DNA of 64,000 nt, from positions 1-64,000 of the forward strand of contig NZ_JABFNK010000002.1 of the NCBI RefSeq assembly GCF_020386975.1. The letters are read 5' to 3'. The position numbers were made by a program, and so were the translations under genes. The notes below the pieces were generated by a model, which worked only from the letters and a program-made list of their open reading frames with translations, had not been told where the DNA came from and ran no database searches. Below, piece after piece: positions 42,266 through 50,768 of this stretch; positions within the stretch are counted from its first letter, which is position 1, and each line of letters starts with the position of its first letter. The DNA comes from Thermococcus bergensis. Lineage in GTDB: Archaea > Methanobacteriota_B > Thermococci > Thermococcales > Thermococcaceae.

Positions 42266-42350
42266 TAGCTCACCTCCCAGTTATTTGCAAAAAATGAACA
42301 TAAGCTAACACTCCTTTGCAGACGTTATTTAAAAACCTTATCCCATTCAA

Positions 42351-43219
42351 GGGCGTGTTTAGTTTCACCCCCTGTTATTTAAACAGTATTTGACTCTGAG
42401 GAGGATTTTCAGACCATAACACATTACCCCAAGCAGGATTCGGGTTACAGTAGTCTTTTTCAGAAAACAGGGGATCCTACTGCCAAACCACGTTGTAAAC
42501 GCACCCCAGAACCCCTCATGAGGATTCCTATGCCTGTACTCTTCTTCAGAAAACACTCTGTCTCTCTTCTTACTACCAAAACCACCTGGAGCGTTCTTAG
42601 TTTTCTTAACAATCGGCCGATAACCCTTTTCCACCACAGTGTTCAGAACTTTCTTTGAATCATAAGCCCCATCAGCATAAAAATTCCCAGAACCCCCCGG
42701 CAGGAGTTCAATCAGCTCGTTCTCAGAAGTTGTGATCTTCACAGCAACCGGATACAGTAAACCCGGCAGGATTCTCGTTATTGCCTGAACTTCTATCCTA
42801 CCCTTTTTTTATTTGTAATAATGGTTGAGTCTGCTTGAGTGCTGGCGTAGGGTAATTTCTGGAGTTTTTTCAGGAGGTGGTTTGTCAGTTCTTCGAGGTT
42901 CAGCTTTTTCTCCCAGTTGTGGAGGGTTGAGTAGTGAATGTTTGCTCCGAAGAATTTTCTGCCGTAGTGCTGGGCGTCTCTGAGGGGTAGGTTGTAGTAT
43001 TGTTTAAAGAGGAGTATTGCCAGTATTGTTTTTACTGGAAATTTTTTGGATTTTGGCAGGTTCTTCAGCTTTCCTTCTGATTCGAAGTCTGCTAAAACGT
43101 CAAGAATTGCGAATGCCACGCTTTCAGGGTCTTTGAGTCTGTGATCCCATCTGGGGATCACGACAACCACCCGAAAGAATTCAGCAAAAACCCTAATAAA
43201 GGTTACTATAAACACGCCC
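42351..43219 (-). mobile_element. Insertion sequence IS-A copy 2
   Basis: 869 bp, with imperfect terminal inverted repeats starting GGGCGTGTTTA. Target duplication TCCCATTCAA at 42341-42350 and 43220-43229. Its transposase 3' end faces the NusA-like gene promoter; the other side is the end of the hps-phi operon. Sequence is nearly identical to copies 3 and 4, so insertion is recent. Confidence 0.95.
42365..43161 (-). CDS. IS-A transposase (two frames, -1 slip)
   Basis: Frame A runs from the proposed GTG at 43161 (alternative GTG 43215 within the terminal repeat) to 42793 and carries TQADST. Frame B, to 42365, carries ADGAYDSKKV and Y(2)R(3)E in YRHRNPHE. They join at a seven-base A tract (T run 42804-42810) by a -1 slip, giving about 265 aa with a full DDE set. 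The start codon forms the base of a hairpin at 43141-43161. Confidence 0.82.
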
Positions 43220-43272
43220 TCCCATTCAAAAATATTGAAATATTGAGAAAATTTAGCGCAAATACCGACAAT

Positions 43273-43887
43273 CTAAAGTTCTCCTTCAATCTCCTTAAGG
43301 AGCCTTTCAATAAACTCCTCAACAAACCTATGCCTTTCCTCTGCTAGTCTTTTTGCAGTTTTTGTGTACATTAAATCCTTAAGCTTTAGTATTTTCTCTT
43401 CAAAGTGCTTTATGGAAGCCTCAATATCCCGTCCATGTTCCCCTGAATACATAAAGACCCTCGCAACTCCTATAGCCCCTATTGCATCAAGCTTATCAGC
43501 ATCACTGAGGATTTTTGCTTCAAGCGTTTGAGGTTCTGGCGGCCTTGAGAACCGATGGGCCTCAATTGCGTGAACAACGTCCTCAACTTTCTGATAGTTA
43601 AGGGAAGTCAGGAACCTGCGAGCAATTTTTGCGCTTTCCTTAGCGTGGTCTTCAACAAGTCCTTTATCCTCCAGAGGCCTGGCAATATCATGAAGCAGAG
43701 CAGCTAAAGCCAAAACGTCCAAATCCGCTCCCTCTACCTTACCAATATGTAAGCATAGATTGAAGACCCTTTTAACGTGAGAAAACCCATGAGTCCCCTC
43801 CCGCTCAAAGAAGTCTCTGGCAAATTCTTCGACCTTTTTGATTAGCTCTATGCTTTTTTTATCTTTTATGTACTCTTCAACCCTCAT
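43273..43887 (-). CDS. HD-domain phosphohydrolase
   Basis: 204 aa from ATG 43887 behind AGGTGA. Metal ligands are in GTHGFSHVKRV (His) and ALLHDIARP (His-Asp), with a further D in LSDADKLDAIG, all hallmarks of the HD fold. Likely a nucleotide or small phosphate ester hydrolase of the YedJ-like group. Last gene of the hps-phi operon, 5 bp after the glutamate cyclase-like gene. Substrate unknown. Confidence 0.85.
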   Translation of the reverse strand: MRVEEYIKDKKSIELIKKVEEFARDFFEREGTHGFSHVKRVFNLCLHIGKVEGADLDVLALAALLHDIARPLEDKGLVEDHAKESAKIARRFLTSLNYQKVEDVVHAIEAHRFSRPPEPQTLEAKILSDADKLDAIGAIGVARVFMYSGEHGRDIEASIKHFEEKILKLKDLMYTKTAKRLAEERHRFVEEFIERLLKEIEGEL

Positions 43888-43892
43888 TCTCT

Positions 43893-44708
43893 TCACCTGA
43901 TTTTATTCTCAACAATGGAACTAAGCAACCTTAAAAATCTTTTATGTACTTCAATAGGTACACCATCAACACTGAGCTCGGGTTTTTTGATAACCCCATC
44001 TATAACTCCTGAAGATACCAAAGCCTTCAAAATCTTTTCTTCCTCATTCTCCCAGCCGGCTAGCATGTTTTTCCCCAGCTCAAGAGACGCCTGGGCAATT
44101 AACCCATAAGCCCCCCAGTTAGACACCGCAGAGAGAACTAAAGAATCAACTTCGATGACACTCCCTATTTTCTCTCCAAACTTTATGTACTTGCAGACTA
44201 ACTCCCTTATGTTTCCCATCCCTATTTCGTTTCCTCCATCCCCGATACCAATTGTGGGAATGCCGAGCTCTCTAGCTTTTAAGAACAGCTCATCAAAAGG
44301 AGGCACCTCTATTTCCAGAGCGCTCATTGAGTAGTACTTTCCGTCCTTAGCCCTTCCCGGTGTTTCAACACTTATTAAGAGAGAATAGTCCTCAATAGAG
44401 GGGTTCTGAGCAAAATTTACTTTAAATTCCTTAAGAGCATCTTGAATCTTTTTGCACGTCAGTATCTCGGCTTTTCCTCCCAGCTTTTCAACAGCTCTGT
44501 AGATGGCTAAAGCCCCAGGTGGACCATCGGTTTCGGCTATCTGCATCGGCGGAATTGGAAAACATGAAACAATCAAAACTCTGTCGAGATTTTTTAAAAA
44601 TAAGGAAGTAGCTTCTCTCAAAAAATCAAAGTTATCTCTGCGATATTCAATATAAAGCCTTAAGACGTTCCTTCCATAGATGTCGGTGTTTATTAGATGC
44701 CCTATCAT
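43893..44708 (-). CDS. D-glutamate cyclase-like (DUF4392) protein
   Basis: 271 aa. Signature segments AETDGPPGA (about 58) and GIGDGGNEIGMGN (about 154) match the DUF4392/DGLUCY C-terminal domain, whose mammalian member cyclises D-glutamate to 5-oxoproline. The archaeal role is unknown. In an operon with a HAD phosphatase and an HD hydrolase it might serve metabolite repair; this is inference. Confidence 0.8.
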   Translation of the reverse strand: MIGHLINTDIYGRNVLRLYIEYRRDNFDFLREATSLFLKNLDRVLIVSCFPIPPMQIAETDGPPGALAIYRAVEKLGGKAEILTCKKIQDALKEFKVNFAQNPSIEDYSLLISVETPGRAKDGKYYSMSALEIEVPPFDELFLKARELGIPTIGIGDGGNEIGMGNIRELVCKYIKFGEKIGSVIEVDSLVLSAVSNWGAYGLIAQASLELGKNMLAGWENEEEKILKALVSSGVIDGVIKKPELSVDGVPIEVHKRFLRLLSSIVENKIR

Positions 44709-44711
44709 TTT

Positions 44712-44891
44712 TCATTCCTCGATTTCATATGCTATAATTTTGACTTTTTTGCCCTTTATTGCCTCTTTAAGGAGCCACCACAGTTCTGTTGGAGATTCTC
44801 TCCTGTGGGTTAACTTATCCCCATTCTCAAGCTCTATAACTTTCTCCTCGTATTTTACAAAGACCCCTTCCTTATTGAATATCTCCCTCAT
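44712..44891 (-). CDS. Small hypothetical protein (59 aa) in the hps-phi operon
   Basis: Starts MREIFNKEGVFVKYEEKVI and ends KGKKVKIIAYEIEE. The ATG overlaps the HAD stop as ATGA at 44888-44891, and its stop is 3 bp before the next start, so the frame is fixed by the operon on both sides. Two beta hairpins flank a short helix containing ELWWLLKEAIKG. No known family. The tight coupling argues that it is a real gene. Confidence 0.75.
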   Translation of the reverse strand: MREIFNKEGVFVKYEEKVIELENGDKLTHRRESPTELWWLLKEAIKGKKVKIIAYEIEE

Positions 44892-45532
44892 CTTAGACCC
44901 CCCAAGATTGTTCTCAGTTGGTGGAGGCTTCTGATTTCAAAATCCGCGAAGTTGTAATCCTCAACGCCTTCCCTATTAATCCATACTGCAAGCATTCCAA
45001 CGTTTTTTGCTCCATAGACATCTTGGTGCAAATTATCCCCAATCATTATGGATTCCTCAGGCTCCACATTTAATTTTTCGCAGGCATATAAAAATATTTT
45101 AGGGTCGGGTTTTACGGTTTTTACGTCTTCCCTAATCACGATTACATCAAAGTACTTATCAAGCTTTGTTATTCTTAGCTTTAACTTCTGGTACTCTGGA
45201 CCGCTTGTTATCACGCCGAGCTTATACCCCTCTTCTCTCAGCCACTCCAAAGTTGGCTTCACATCAGGGAAAACGTGAATCTTGTGAGGATACTGCCTCA
45301 AGAGCTCCTCGTATCTAAAGTCCAGCCCAAAGATTTCAAAAAAGAAGTTCCAGTCGTGCCATTCGTAAGTATCCTTTTTCTCAGAAATCTCTCTAAGGAA
45401 TTTTAATCTGGCATCTCCTCTCGAAATCCCCAACTTCTTTGAAAGCATATCATAGACCTGGGGGAGAAAGAGCATTATAAGCGGTTTTTCACTTAAAAGG
45501 GTCTCATCTATGTCAAAGAACACCGCTTCCAT
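44888..45532 (-). CDS. HAD superfamily hydrolase (TIGR02253-like)
   Basis: 214 aa. Motif I FFDIDETLLSE (residues 5-15), motif II VITSGPEYQ (about 107), motif III Lys in TVKPDPKIF and motif IV GDNLHQDVYGA (about 166). A helical cap type 1. Such archaeal enzymes act on phosphoglycolate-like or nucleoside phosphates; the substrate is not known. The start is 1 bp after the FtsZ-like gene. Confidence 0.85.
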   Translation of the reverse strand: MEAVFFDIDETLLSEKPLIMLFLPQVYDMLSKKLGISRGDARLKFLREISEKKDTYEWHDWNFFFEIFGLDFRYEELLRQYPHKIHVFPDVKPTLEWLREEGYKLGVITSGPEYQKLKLRITKLDKYFDVIVIREDVKTVKPDPKIFLYACEKLNVEPEESIMIGDNLHQDVYGAKNVGMLAVWINREGVEDYNFADFEIRSLHQLRTILGGLR

Positions 45533-45533
45533 C

Positions 45534-46289
45534 CTACCACCCCTTAACCAAAAGGGAGAGGATTTCCACTTGCTCCTCTAAACCCTCCTCCATTTTTATC
45601 CCCCATATTATGTCTTTTTCTTTTAGGAGACCTTGAAACATGCTGAGTATTTTGTGAGCATAATTCAGCGGGACTTTTTCACCAACTAAGATGTTCACCA
45701 AGCCCCTGTCCCATATTCCCCAGTGCCAGTCAAAATCAACCTTCCTTAAAAGACGTAATATGCCCACGTTGTTTCCCTTTACCATGCTAAAGAAGTCAGC
45801 GTAATCAACATTTACCAGCATTTGGTTTTCTAGGTAATAGTAGAGTCTCGTGAACATCAGGCCAATATTTTTTGCTGCCATTTGGAATGCAGACTCAAGG
45901 GACGAAGAGGTGTATTCGTCAAGAAATTCCCACAAGGAGTCATAAAATACGGTGTCAAAGTTCTCCGCCCATTGAGGCTTTTCTTCGTTAATAAGCTCCC
46001 TTTGGGGGGTAAGGAGGTAAGCCAGTTTAAGGGGCTTTCGCGGCACATATTCCAGAATAATTTGCATTATTTCAACATTTACTGGCTTATTTTCAAGGAT
46101 AAACCATAAAATTGCATCATCCGGAATGTTCCAGAACAACTCCTTAAGGTTTTGACGGAAAGAAGACCTTCCAAGCAGATAATATGTTGGATTTATCACG
46201 ATCTTTGGGGTTCTTTTTATATCAATATTTTGAACAACTTTGCCCCCATTATTCCCAATTCCAACGAAAATATGGGAAAAAGAAACCAT
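45534..46289 (-). CDS. Degenerate FtsZ/tubulin-like protein lacking the GTP-binding loop
   Basis: 251 aa. Segments line up in order with FtsZ: VGIGNNGGKVV (9-19) with the N-terminal GxGGxG loop, FDTVFYDS (111-118) with the VDTLIVIPN strand, LVNVDYADF (158-166) with INLDFADV, and IIWGIKMEE plus VEILSLLVKG (227-250) with the C-terminal IIFGAxxDE and VTVIATG strands. The GGGTGTG tubulin signature is missing; the region holds ENKPVNVE. It probably keeps the fold but cannot bind GTP in the usual way. Start at ATG 46289 (GTGAT before it); a GTG at 46298 overlaps the hps-phi stop. The assignment is by eye and needs profile support. Confidence 0.55.
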   Translation of the reverse strand: MVSFSHIFVGIGNNGGKVVQNIDIKRTPKIVINPTYYLLGRSSFRQNLKELFWNIPDDAILWFILENKPVNVEIMQIILEYVPRKPLKLAYLLTPQRELINEEKPQWAENFDTVFYDSLWEFLDEYTSSSLESAFQMAAKNIGLMFTRLYYYLENQMLVNVDYADFFSMVKGNNVGILRLLRKVDFDWHWGIWDRGLVNILVGEKVPLNYAHKILSMFQGLLKEKDIIWGIKMEEGLEEQVEILSLLVKGW

Positions 46290-46294
46290 ATGGA

Positions 46295-47515
46295 TCACTC
46301 TAAGGTTGCGTGTTTTTTCTTCATCTCTTGTTCGGTCTTCTGGAACGTTGCCATTAGAAGTGCTATGATACCGTCCAAGAACAGCATAGTTGAGTCTTCA
46401 AACAGCGTACCCATTGGAGCAATCCACTTGTATTGGGTGAGCATTTGCCTTGCAATATAATCGGTTGGAATGTCTGATTTTGTCCTTCCCGGAATCTCTA
46501 CCACAACATCGGCAAGCTTTCCAAGAGTGGAGTCTTTATATGACGTTATCGCAACAATTTTTCCGCTCTGCTTCTTCGCAATTTCAGCCGCATCTACTAT
46601 CGTTCTTGTTTCACCACTACCACTGATTGCAATTAAGAGGTCTCCTTCTTCAAAGGCTGGGGTAATCGTTTCACCAACAACATAGACGTTAAAGTCAAGG
46701 TGCATCAAGCGCATTGCGAAAGCCTTGCCAACAAGGCCGCTTCTTCCGGCACCGTAAATGAAGATTTTATTTGCCCCTATCATGGCATCTACCATTCCTC
46801 TGACCTGCTCAAGCTTTAGAGAATCCGCAACCATGTTTATATGTTCGGTTATATCTTTGATCGCTTTTCTTATGGTAGCCATGTATTCACCCCAGAATAG
46901 GTCAATTATTTTTCTTGTGACTTCCTCTGGATCCTTAGCCTTTGTTATTGCGCCTCCAACAATGATAATAGTTGCCCCTGCTTCAATAACTTTGGGAATC
47001 GTTTCTAAGTTTAAGCCACCTGCAACAGCGACTGGGACTTTTACTGCTTTTACAACTTTCTCTAAATCTTCTAATGGGTTCTTTCCTTGGGCCTGCTCGT
47101 CTATTCCCGTGTGAACTAAAATGTAATGAACACCCATTTGCTCAAGTTCTTTAGCCCTTTTTACCTTATCCTTAACTCCTATTAGATCAACCATTACCTT
47201 TATTCCATACCTTCTTGCAACTGCCACAGCGTCTTTTATCGTCTTGTCATCTGCAACTCCAAGTATTGAGACAACATCAGCACCGTGTCTCGCTGCCATC
47301 TCAACTTCAAGGGCCCCAGTGTCCATTGTTTTTAAATCTGCTACAATTTTTCTATCGGGGAATCTTCTTTTCATTAGTTCTACAGCTCTCATGCCTTCCT
47401 TTTTTATTAGGGGAGTCCCCACTTCAAGCCAATGGGCTCCACCGCGAGCGGCTTTCTCTGCTATAGACATTGCTTGCTCTATATCAGTCAGATCAAGCGC
47501 TACCTGCAGGATCAT
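46295..47515 (-). CDS. Hexulose-6-phosphate synthase/6-phospho-3-hexuloisomerase fusion
   Basis: 406 aa in two domains, the size of the Pyrococcus Hps-Phi fusion. Residues 1 to about 212 are a TIM barrel (VADLKTMDTG, VAVAGGL, IIIVGGAI); from about 220 a SIS isomerase domain (IYGAGRSGLVG, ISGSGET). In Thermococcales it runs in reverse, making ribulose 5-phosphate and formaldehyde from fructose 6-phosphate in place of the oxidative pentose pathway. The ATG at 47515 has AGGAGGT 8 nt away. First of a six-gene operon. Confidence 0.95.
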   Translation of the reverse strand: MILQVALDLTDIEQAMSIAEKAARGGAHWLEVGTPLIKKEGMRAVELMKRRFPDRKIVADLKTMDTGALEVEMAARHGADVVSILGVADDKTIKDAVAVARRYGIKVMVDLIGVKDKVKRAKELEQMGVHYILVHTGIDEQAQGKNPLEDLEKVVKAVKVPVAVAGGLNLETIPKVIEAGATIIIVGGAITKAKDPEEVTRKIIDLFWGEYMATIRKAIKDITEHINMVADSLKLEQVRGMVDAMIGANKIFIYGAGRSGLVGKAFAMRLMHLDFNVYVVGETITPAFEEGDLLIAISGSGETRTIVDAAEIAKKQSGKIVAITSYKDSTLGKLADVVVEIPGRTKSDIPTDYIARQMLTQYKWIAPMGTLFEDSTMLFLDGIIALLMATFQKTEQEMKKKHATLE

Positions 47516-47629
47516 CTTAACGTACCTCCTAATAATCCTCAAGTTAACATCAAAACTGGCGCTTTTAACTTTAACTCTTCCACATATAAATTTAAAAGGG
47601 ATAGCTCGAAATAGCTTTGGGGGGATAAA

Positions 47630-48358
47630 ATGGTTACATTTATCCCTTTCGGGGAGAAGCCCAATAAAGAAGGAGTTATGTACACCATAGAATTGTTAAA
47701 AAAGAACAAACTAATCGAGGATTTTATGATTGTCGAATCGAATAATGTAGAACTCCTTGCAGACAGAGTACCTTTAGATAAGTGCTATATCATTGGAGAG
47801 CATTTAGCAACGTATGGAATAATCAAAAGGGTAAAACCACAGTCTATAATAAGTATCGATGCTCATACTGACCTCATGCACGATTACCTTGATCACGGTT
47901 CATGGCTCGCCTATGCTCTGGAGGAGAAAGCAGTGAACAGAGCTGCGGTAGTTGGACCGGTATTGATGGTACCCACCACCGAAGGTACAAGTTTATGGGT
48001 AAGAAGAGTTAAAATCTTCCCTGCACTCCCAAGAACCAGAAAAGTAAGAGGAAAATGGAAAGCATACAAAAGCCTAAAAACTTCCCCAATAGACGAAATA
48101 ATTGCAGAAATGCGAAGATACCTTGGAAAAGAAGTCTACCTGACAGTTGACATGGACGTTCTAAAGCCCGAATATAAGATTGCCAGATTTCAGCATGGAG
48201 AGCTCACCTTGGAAGAGCTGTTAGAACTTATAAGCGAAATTAAGAAAAACTTCAAGATAGTAGCATGTGATATAGCGGAAATTTCAGACAAAATAAAAAG
48301 ATCAAAACTTGGAAAGAAAGCTTTGATTGAAGTTTACAGGGCACTTATAGGTGAGTAA
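47630..48358 (+). CDS. Arginase/agmatinase-family ureohydrolase
   Basis: 242 aa, shorter than typical agmatinase (about 300). Metal ligands are present: His in IIGEHLA (about 55), DAHTD in SIDAHTDL (about 82) and DMD in LTVDMDV (about 172). The substrate loop differs from agmatinase, so the substrate is uncertain. Divergent from hps-phi; followed at once by two small genes. Confidence 0.8.
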   Translation: MVTFIPFGEKPNKEGVMYTIELLKKNKLIEDFMIVESNNVELLADRVPLDKCYIIGEHLATYGIIKRVKPQSIISIDAHTDLMHDYLDHGSWLAYALEEKAVNRAAVVGPVLMVPTTEGTSLWVRRVKIFPALPRTRKVRGKWKAYKSLKTSPIDEIIAEMRRYLGKEVYLTVDMDVLKPEYKIARFQHGELTLEELLELISEIKKNFKIVACDIAEISDKIKRSKLGKKALIEVYRALIGE

Positions 48359-48892: not shown

Positions 48893-49687
48893 TTAAACTT
48901 TCTCCGCTTTTTCCCAGTATTCATTGAACTTTCCTTTAAAGAGCTCAACTACTCTAAAGTCCTTTATCCAGACCTGGGTCTCGTAGTTAAAGTATCTCGC
49001 TGCCAAGTCCTCTAAAGCAAAGAACACTTCCTCGTCACAAATTAGCATGGGGAGCTCTATTTTGTCAAGTACTTTAAGCTCAAGCTTTCCTTCTTTGTAG
49101 TAGTCCATTATCTTTGATGTCTCAATTCTTGGGAGAACTTGTTTGGATACTATTATTTTTGCATTAACTCCCCTATCGACGGCTTTTGTTAGCTCTTCAT
49201 CGAGGTTCGCCGCGATGTAGCCGTTATCTGCCAGCAGTATTTCCTTTTCAACCTCTTCAAGCATCTCCTGAGTCTTGAGAGTTGAGTTTCTAATACCCCT
49301 AACTACCCAAACTCTCTCCACTCCATATTTGGGAACCTCTGTTTCTATTAACGGAGTCATGAGTTCTAAGAGTTCCTCCTTAGCCTTCTTCTTGGCTTCA
49401 AGTTCCTCTTTTACTCTAACCTGCCAGTCCTCAATGAACTTCTCAAGAACGTTTTTGGGGTGCACTGGCCTGTATTTGTTGGCTTTTCCGGGCTGGCTTA
49501 ATGCAAACCCCTTCTTTTCCAAACTCCTCAAAACGTCGTAAGTTCTTGGAGCTGGTACTTCGGAAACACTCGCAAGCTCTGCGGGTGTGAGAACCCCAAA
49601 GGCGACCAATGCAACATAAGCCCTAGCCTCATACAAGTTCAGTTCAAAGTGCTCCTGTAAAAGCTCTACCATTCTTTCTTTCACCAT
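48893..49687 (-). CDS. Chromatin protein TrmBL2
   Basis: 264 aa, the length of T. kodakarensis TrmBL2, with an N-terminal winged helix (LNLYEARAYVALVAFG and LASVSEVPAPRTYDVLRSLE). The remainder is the TrmB-like ligand domain, here with no known sugar. TrmBL2 coats DNA as thick filaments and represses many genes. A strong site GAAGAGGTGAT precedes the ATG. IS-A copy 3 lies 62 bp upstream, 3 bp beyond the TATA box AATTTATATA (49727-49736). Confidence 0.92.
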   Translation of the reverse strand: MVKERMVELLQEHFELNLYEARAYVALVAFGVLTPAELASVSEVPAPRTYDVLRSLEKKGFALSQPGKANKYRPVHPKNVLEKFIEDWQVRVKEELEAKKKAKEELLELMTPLIETEVPKYGVERVWVVRGIRNSTLKTQEMLEEVEKEILLADNGYIAANLDEELTKAVDRGVNAKIIVSKQVLPRIETSKIMDYYKEGKLELKVLDKIELPMLICDEEVFFALEDLAARYFNYETQVWIKDFRVVELFKGKFNEYWEKAEKV

Positions 49688-49749
49688 TTTTAATCACCTC
49701 TTCTATTTGTAAAATCTCCAAAGACCTATATAAATTTTTTCTTATTGAT

Positions 49750-50618
49750 GGGCGTGTTTATAGTAACCTTTATTAGGGTTTTTGCTGAATTCTTTCAGGT
49801 GGTTGTCGTGATCCCCAGATGGGATCACAGACTCAAAGACCCTGAAAGCGTGGCATTCGCAATTCTTGACGTTTTAGCAGACTTCGAATCAGAAGGAAAG
49901 CTGAAGAACCTGCCAAAATCCAAAAAATTTCCAGTAAAAACAATACTGGCAATACTCCTCTTTAAACAATACTACAACCTACCCCTCAGAGACGCCCAGC
50001 ACTACGGCAGAAAATTCTTCGGAGCAAACATTCACTACTCAACCCTCCACAACTGGGAGAAAAAGCTGAACCTCGAAGAACTGACAAACCACCTCCTGAA
50101 AAAACTCCAGAAATTACCCTACGCCAGCACTCAAGCAGACTCAACCATTATTACAAATAAAAAAAGGGTAGGATAGAAGTTCAGGCAATAACGAGAATCC
50201 TGCCGGGTTTACTGTATCCGGTTGCTGTGAAGATCACAACTTCTGAGAACGAGCTGATTGAACTCCTGCCGGGGGGTTCTGGGAATTTTTATGCTGATGG
50301 GGCTTATGATTCAAAGAAAGTTCTGAACACTGTGGTGGAAAAGGGTTATCGGCCGATTGTTAAGAAAACTAAGAACGCTCCAGGTGGTTTTGGTAGTAAG
50401 AAGAGAGACAGAGTGTTTTCTGAAGAAGAGTACAGGCATAGGAATCCTCATGAGGGGTTCTGGGGTGCGTTTACAACGTGGTTTGGCAGTAGGATCCCCT
50501 GTTTTCTGAAAAAGACTACTGTAACCCGAATCCTGCTTGGGGTAATGTGTTATGGTCTGAAAATCCTCCTCAGAGTCAAATACTGTTTAAATAACAGGGG
50601 GTGAAACTAAACACGCCC
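49750..50618 (+). mobile_element. Insertion sequence IS-A copy 3
   Basis: 869 bp. Target duplication TCTTATTGAT at 49740-49749 and 50619-50628. Its transposase 5' end faces the trmBL2 promoter, so the two genes diverge. Differs from copy 4 at only a few bases, including A for G in the transposase ribosome site (AGGTGGTT). Confidence 0.96.
49808..50604 (+). CDS. IS-A transposase (two frames, -1 slip)
   Basis: Frame A from the proposed GTG at 49808 to a TAG near 50176 (an in-frame GTG at 49754 lies in the terminal repeat without its own ribosome site). Frame B runs on to 50604. The slip tract is A7 at 50159-50165, flanked as T-AAA-AAA-AG, giving about 265 aa. The start codon is the first base-paired triplet of the hairpin 49808-49828. 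Confidence 0.82.
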
Positions 50619-50768
50619 TCTTATTGATTTTAGTTGCACTTTTTCTAATTGTAATTTTATTTTGACTGCATAAATATGCAATTCTGTTACTATTAAAATA
50701 GTTAAAAATACACAACAAAGCATGTAACATGCATTTACACATAACCCTGTTACAGAGCAGTGAATTTA

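What the first reader, a model, noticed from the sequence alone, without database searches (positions are those of the whole stretch)
45534..46289. FtsZ-like protein without a GTP-binding loop, in a sugar-phosphate operon
Seen: five segments match FtsZ in order and spacing (VGIGNNGGKVV, FDTVFYDS, LVNVDYADF, IIWGIKMEE, VEILSLLVKG), while the GGGTGTG signature is absent and replaced by ENKPVNVE. Known: tubulin-fold proteins need that loop to bind GTP. Inference: a non-polymerising FtsZ-fold protein, perhaps a regulator or partner of true FtsZ, cotranscribed with hps-phi and HAD, glutamate-cyclase-like and HD genes.
Basis: partly seen in the sequence, partly recalled or inferred. Interest (0 to 1): 0.72.

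Follow-up and report, generated by a model that had tools for sequence, protein, structure and literature searches.

The report
FtsZ relative lacking its GTP site
All Thermococcales (a group of heat-loving archaea) carry a small, overlooked relative of the cell-division filament protein FtsZ that has lost its own GTP-binding parts but kept the part that makes a neighbouring FtsZ split GTP, so it may act as a built-in brake or cap on FtsZ filaments.

Summary
A 251-aa ORF on the minus strand (46289-45534) is homologous to FtsZ: its 21-member family profile finds M. jannaschii FtsZ1 in the PDB (E 8e-8), matches archaeal FtsZ2 nearly full length (hhalign 97%, E 2.7e-11), and AlphaFold models of two members match FtsZ first in Foldseek. 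The single protein alone gives almost nothing (no Pfam hit).

The GTP side is gone: T4 glycines, T3 with its flanks, and the T6 Asn are missing, as are H9 and the C-terminal tail. The T7 residues N160, D162 and D165, equivalent to S. aureus N208/D210/D213, which act on the neighbouring subunit's GTP, are identical in 89 of 89 orthologues. So half an active site is kept, the half that works in trans.

The gene is under strong purifying selection in 89 of 94 Thermococcales genomes, all six genera; the five gaps look like assembly breaks. It always sits between hps-phi and a HAD phosphatase gene. The genome also encodes FtsZ1, FtsZ2 and CetZ.

Best mechanism (inferred, about 0.42): it docks by its T7 face on the GTP face of FtsZ, triggers hydrolysis and blocks extension, resembling plant ARC3. 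No interaction was tested. The pocket has its own conserved residues, so a metabolic ligand remains possible.

The parts
45534..46289 (-). FtsZ-like pseudo-GTPase gene, 251 aa (ATG start; alternative GTG start at 46298)
46245..46262 (-). T1-like loop G10-I-G-N-N-G15; G10 and G12 invariant in 89/89
46077..46094 (-). Site of the FtsZ T4 loop: E66-N-K-P-V-N71 in place of GGGTGTG; N71 invariant in 89/89
45936..45941 (-). T6 site D117-S118 (invariant) in the most conserved stretch TVFYDSL; the FtsZ T6 Asn is absent
45795..45812 (-). T7 (synergy) loop N160-V-D162-Y-A-D165; N160, D162, A164 and D165 invariant in 89/89; equivalent to SaFtsZ N208/D210/D213
45537..45725 (-). Residues 189-251, C-terminal (GTPase-activating) subdomain S8-S10, without helix H9 and without a C-terminal tail
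46295..47524 (-). hps-phi: bifunctional 3-hexulose-6-phosphate synthase / 6-phospho-3-hexuloisomerase, directly upstream (5-nt gap)
   Evidence: NF041755 557.8 bits, cut-off 500
44888..45532 (-). HAD-type phosphatase (TIGR02253, CTE7 subfamily), directly downstream (1-nt gap)
43893..44708 (-). D-glutamate cyclase-like gene (PF14336), 179 nt downstream of HAD; neighbour, cotranscription not shown
43273..43896 (-). HD-domain phosphohydrolase, overlapping the previous gene

Best explanation
The gene encodes an FtsZ-derived pseudo-GTPase (a 'half-site' FtsZ), ancestral in Thermococcales. Shown by sequence: it descends from the FtsZ family, has lost the elements that bind GTP (T3 and its flanks, T4, T6 Asn), and keeps without exception the T7 residues that in FtsZ complete the active site of the neighbouring subunit. 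Inferred: it docks with its T7/C-terminal face on the GTP-loaded face of a real filament subunit (FtsZ2 is the closest homologue; FtsZ1 or CetZ are possible), positions the attacking water, and triggers GTP hydrolysis. Lacking GTP on its own top face it cannot accept the next subunit, so it caps or shortens filaments. Inferred further and weaker: because it is always encoded with hps-phi and a sugar-phosphate-type phosphatase, its level, or a ligand in its remodelled pocket, ties filament turnover to pentose-phosphate or nucleotide supply.
For: Homology and fold. One-sided loss: alignment. N160/D162/D165 identical in 89/89 orthologues; the T7 element has mean entropy 0.32 bits against 1.24 for the protein. 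SaFtsZ D210 and D213 in the top subunit's T7 loop hold the precatalytic water on the bottom subunit's nucleotide, and N208 contacts the bottom subunit (PMC8936486). The genome carries intact FtsZ1, FtsZ2 and CetZ as possible partners. Precedent: plant ARC3, which is part FtsZ-derived, binds FtsZ1/FtsZ2 and is reported to disassemble FtsZ2 by enhancing its GTPase activity (PMC5855766; PMC5471200). Purifying selection and near-universality.
Against: The pocket side is not merely eroded: S6/T6 (TVFYDSL) is the most conserved stretch and N71, E98, W107, D117 and S118 are invariant, so the protein may have its own ligand. The T7 loop might be kept partly for folding. The genomic partners are metabolic, not division genes. 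The T7 and C-terminal region of the structure models is low in confidence.
Confidence: 0.42

Rival explanations
1. It is a metabolic regulator or enzyme-complex subunit. The FtsZ fold was repurposed: the former nucleotide pocket now binds another ligand, for example a sugar phosphate, and the protein works with HPS-PHI and the HAD phosphatase rather than with filaments.
For: Invariant hps-phi / ftsZ-like / HAD order in every intact, complete locus of six genera. Own conserved pocket set N71, E98, W107, D117, S118, with E66 and K68 mostly kept. Weak secondary Foldseek similarity of the N-terminal half to SIS-domain sugar isomerases.
Against: Does not explain invariant N160/D162/D165 at exactly the trans-catalytic positions. 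HPS or PHI homologues occur in other families of the class that lack this gene. The SIS similarity ranks below the FtsZ hits and may only reflect a common alpha/beta sandwich.
Confidence: 0.27
2. It co-assembles with FtsZ as a structural subunit or filament-end adaptor (positive nucleator or tether) rather than as an inhibitor, using its changed top face to attach something else.
For: Retained T7 face plus a differently conserved top face fits an adaptor that ends a filament and presents a new surface.
Against: No C-terminal tail for a membrane anchor such as SepF; the single short domain leaves little room for a second partner site.
Confidence: 0.16
3. It still binds a nucleotide or polymerises on its own by a changed mechanism.
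For: T1 glycines G10 and G12 are invariant and G15 is in 88/89.
Against: T3, T4 and the T6 Asn are all missing in every alignment row shown.
Confidence: 0.08
4. Chance resemblance, or a decaying FtsZ pseudogene.
For: P0001 alone has no Pfam hit and only E 0.005 to 0.2 elsewhere.
Against: Profile and structure matches, dN/dS 0.05-0.17, intact copy throughout the order.
Confidence: 0.02

Closest known systems
Archaeal FtsZ2 (and FtsZ1)
   Same: Homologous almost full length (hhalign 97.3%, E 2.7e-11 to FtsZ2; 95.3%, E 2.4e-8 to FtsZ1, C-terminal half); T1 glycines and the T7 N-x-D-x-x-D residues kept
   Different: No T3, T4 or T6 Asn, no H9, no C-terminal tail; 251 aa against about 370-450; very long branch (about 7 changes per column), so the exact FtsZ parent is unresolved (AU tests not significant)
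Plant chloroplast ARC3
   Same: FtsZ-derived accessory protein beside real FtsZs; reported to inhibit assembly and enhance FtsZ2 GTPase (PMC5855766)
   Different: ARC3 is a multidomain eukaryotic chimera with a MORN region; no direct relation was tested, and its motif state was not examined here
CetZ
   Same: Tubulin superfamily, present in the same genomes
   Different: CetZ keeps GGGTGAG and is about 370 aa; the profile comparison with this family is not significant
FtsZl1 / FtsZl2 (Makarova and Koonin 2010)
   Same: Divergent prokaryotic FtsZ-like families
   Different: Those carry the GGGTG(S/T)G loop (the motif was the search key for one family and is reported in the other; PMC2875224); this family lacks it
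MciZ and SulA (FtsZ inhibitors)
   Same: Proposed action at an FtsZ subunit interface (functional analogy, from general knowledge)
   Different: They are not FtsZ homologues, and they bind FtsZ's T7/C-terminal side, whereas this protein would imitate that side (general knowledge)

Membership tests
FtsZ (canonical, TIGR00065) | Score above the curated cut-off (295.2 bits) | tested here: not met
   16.2 bits, E 0.005; 9.5 bits in the genome scan
FtsZ (canonical, TIGR00065) | T4 GTP signature GGGTGTG | tested here: not met
   Absent in the family; the site reads [ED][DN]K-x-x-N in most members
FtsZ (canonical, TIGR00065) | T7 catalytic loop N-x-D-x-x-D | tested here: met
   N160, D162, D165 in 89/89
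FtsZ (canonical, TIGR00065) | GTP binding and polymerisation | not testable with these tools
   Needs a biochemical assay; loss is predicted from the missing T3, T4 and T6
FtsZ/tubulin superfamily (fold) | Significant sequence-profile relation to FtsZ | tested here: met
FtsZ/tubulin superfamily (fold) | FtsZ-like fold | tested here: met
   Two AlphaFold models (pTM 0.71 and 0.61) match FtsZ first in Foldseek, E 2.7e-5 and 5.2e-5, probability 1.00. TM-scores are only 0.4-0.6 because the C-terminal part is modelled with low confidence
CetZ | Profile similarity to Thermococcales CetZ | tested here: not met
   hhalign probability 2%
FtsZl1/FtsZl2 | GGGTG(S/T)G loop | tested here: not met
   Absent (definition from PMC2875224)
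ARC3-type FtsZ regulator (functional analogue) | Binds FtsZ and raises its GTPase activity | not testable with these tools
   Only the retained T7 triad hints at it

The most novel reading that the evidence does not exclude
A dedicated archaeal 'half-site' FtsZ that supplies the T7 catalytic residues in trans to FtsZ filaments (an FtsZ-derived GTPase activator and end cap), with its own pocket remodelled to sense a sugar-phosphate metabolite made by the co-encoded HPS-PHI/HAD enzymes, so that pentose or nucleotide supply controls cell division in Thermococcales.
Probability: 0.15. Interest if true: 0.9.

Novelty: new variant of a known kind. Interest (0 to 1): 0.62.

Why it matters
How archaeal FtsZ filaments are regulated is largely unknown (general knowledge). 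This is a near-universal member of the FtsZ family in an order that includes genetically tractable species. A large FtsZ/tubulin survey that searched with the GTPase-domain model PF00091 (PMC9871819) would be expected to miss it, since permissive Pfam scans of 21 members return only FtsZ_C among tubulin-superfamily models; in the passages read, a survey of archaeal tubulin-superfamily proteins does not mention a universal Thermococcales member of this kind (PMC9856176). If the T7-in-trans idea holds, one deletion strain and one GTPase assay would reveal a division regulator and a natural separation of the two halves of the FtsZ active site, possibly linked to carbon metabolism.

Tried and rejected
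Chance similarity or pseudogene: rejected by profile, fold, conservation and dN/dS. Plasmid-borne element: no match in 72,556 plasmids. Members outside Thermococcales: 21 other genomes of the same class give only weak hits; the two short ones checked (G112, G108) carry GGGTG(S/T)G and are real FtsZs, G108's cut by its contig end. True absence in five Thermococcales genomes: hps-phi is also missing, or cut at a contig end, in all five, and in G057 the contig ends inside HAD just before the gene. Pinning the parent paralogue by tree: family monophyletic (100/100); the C-terminal tree puts it within FtsZ2 (90/87), but AU tests reject neither FtsZ1 nor CetZ (p 0.32 and 0.26), so only profile comparison favours FtsZ2. 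A second AlphaFold run headed by another orthologue was poorer. The locus-tag literature search was swamped by Pfam accessions. Literature searches found no description of this family, within an open-access library only.

Full report
OBSERVATION. The interval holds a 251-codon ORF on the minus strand, ATG 46289 to stop 45534; the plus strand is full of stops. The ATG is favoured over the upstream GTG (46298) because the Met is aligned across most orthologues.

IS IT FtsZ? From the single sequence the case is thin: no Pfam match even at E 10, NCBIfam ftsZ E 0.005, best PDB sequence hit M. jannaschii FtsZ1 at E 0.2. With a 21-member family profile it is solid: M. jannaschii FtsZ1 at E 8e-8, with two separate stretches, H7-T7-H8 and S9-H10-S10; Thermococcales FtsZ2 down to E 1.6e-10; 15 of 21 members hit Pfam FtsZ_C; hhalign against FtsZ2 97.3%, E 2.7e-11 over residues 8-244, against FtsZ1 95.3%, E 2.4e-8, and against CetZ not significant. 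AlphaFold on nine sequences gave pTM 0.71, confident for residues 1-150 and poor for T7 and the C-terminal domain; Foldseek returned FtsZ for the first 36 hits, best E 2.7e-5. A second model headed by a 56% identical orthologue was weaker but also returned FtsZ first. TM-scores are modest (0.4-0.6), so the structural evidence is supportive, not independent proof.

DISTRIBUTION. 89 of 94 Thermococcales genomes have it, in all six genera, mostly 49-98% identical. The five without it also lack hps-phi, or have it cut at a contig end; in G057 the contig stops inside HAD just before the gene. It was not found in the 21 other genomes of the phylum searched, whose weak hits, where checked, are true FtsZs, nor on plasmids. 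Pairwise dN/dS is 0.05-0.17.

ANATOMY. Aligned with FtsZ1, FtsZ2 and CetZ of the same genomes, the family lacks about 30 residues covering T3 and its flanks, the T4 glycines, the T6 Asn, H9 and the whole C-terminal tail. It keeps the T1 glycines. The T7 loop is intact: N160, D162, A164 and D165 are identical in 89 of 89 orthologues, matching M. jannaschii N233, D235 and D238 by the alignment. In S. aureus FtsZ the corresponding D210 and D213 of the upper subunit hold the attacking water on the lower subunit's nucleotide, and N208 contacts the lower subunit (PMC8936486). T7 mean entropy is 0.32 bits against 1.24 overall. The half of the active site that serves the protein itself is gone; the half that serves a neighbour is kept. 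The former pocket also carries its own strictly conserved residues (N71, E98, W107, D117, S118; stretch TVFYDSL at 0.06 bits), so it is remodelled rather than simply eroded.

CONTEXT. In every intact, complete locus examined the order is hps-phi, this gene, HAD phosphatase, same strand, with gaps of a few tens of nucleotides at most; in the window 5 and 1 nt. hps-phi meets the curated cut-off for the fused RuMP enzyme and HAD that for TIGR02253. The D-glutamate-cyclase-like and HD genes follow after 179 nt and are not in that place in two genera, so the tight unit is the triad. The FtsZ-like gene is the fastest-evolving member (about 55% identity across genera against about 90% for hps-phi and 70% for HAD). 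The same genome carries FtsZ1 (beside genes that look by eye like rpl11 and nusG), FtsZ2 and CetZ.

MECHANISM. Retention of the trans-catalytic residues without a GTP site is most simply explained if the protein presents its T7 face to the GTP face of a real filament subunit, promotes hydrolysis, and cannot be extended further: a cap or GTPase activator. Plant ARC3, a chimera containing an FtsZ-derived part, is a working precedent: it binds FtsZ1 and FtsZ2 and is reported to disassemble FtsZ2 by enhancing its GTPase activity (PMC5855766; PMC5471200). Steps shown: ancestry, one-sided loss, invariance of T7, selection, conserved gene order. Steps inferred: docking, hydrolysis, capping, choice of partner, link to sugar phosphates. 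The chief rival is a metabolic role: the pocket is conserved, the neighbours are enzymes, and the N-terminal half has weak Foldseek similarity to SIS sugar isomerases. That rival leaves the T7 triad unexplained. I put about 0.42 on cap/activator, 0.27 on a purely metabolic role and 0.16 on a structural adaptor.

ORIGIN. The family is monophyletic (100/100). The C-terminal tree nests it in FtsZ2 (90/87) on a branch of about 7 changes per column; AU tests do not reject other placements. FtsZ2 ancestry is favoured by the profile scores only.

NOVELTY. I found no description of this family in the searched library. PMC9871819 searched with PF00091, which this family does not match; PMC2875224 used the GGGTG(S/T)G motif as a search key; PMC9856176 notes an extra divergent protein in only two Thermococcus strains. 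Subscription papers, preprints and arCOG tables were not searched, so an existing bare annotation cannot be excluded. It is best called a new variant of a known kind: a pseudo-GTPase branch of the FtsZ family.

Noticed in passing
window 42350-43242 (-) and 49727-50619 (+): Two 99% identical 893-nt insertion-sequence copies in inverted orientation, 6.5 kb apart, flank the hps-phi / ftsZ-like / HAD / HD region and its divergent neighbours; the left copy lies close to the end of the HD gene.
   Followed up: partly
L006 (G075, contig 13): hps-phi and the FtsZ-like gene read as one 662-aa open frame, from a frame change at the junction; real fusion or draft-assembly error not resolved.
   Followed up: no
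L052 (G070:C2, about 360947-361698) and L053 (G070:C3): One genome has an intact copy and a second, broken copy (frame change and a TGA) beside another HAD gene, while only a remnant of hps-phi was found beside the broken copy; recent duplication and decay, or a mixed assembly.
   Followed up: partly
L077 and other Thermococcales FtsZ1 loci: Several true FtsZ1 proteins have NLDFNDV in T7 (Asn in place of the usual Ala), whereas FtsZ2 and the FtsZ-like family keep the Ala.
   Followed up: no
window 47630-48358 (+): Divergently transcribed arginase/agmatinase-family gene next to hps-phi, scoring far below the agmatinase cut-off; the gene at 48893-49687 looks by eye like a TrmB-type regulator.
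   Followed up: no
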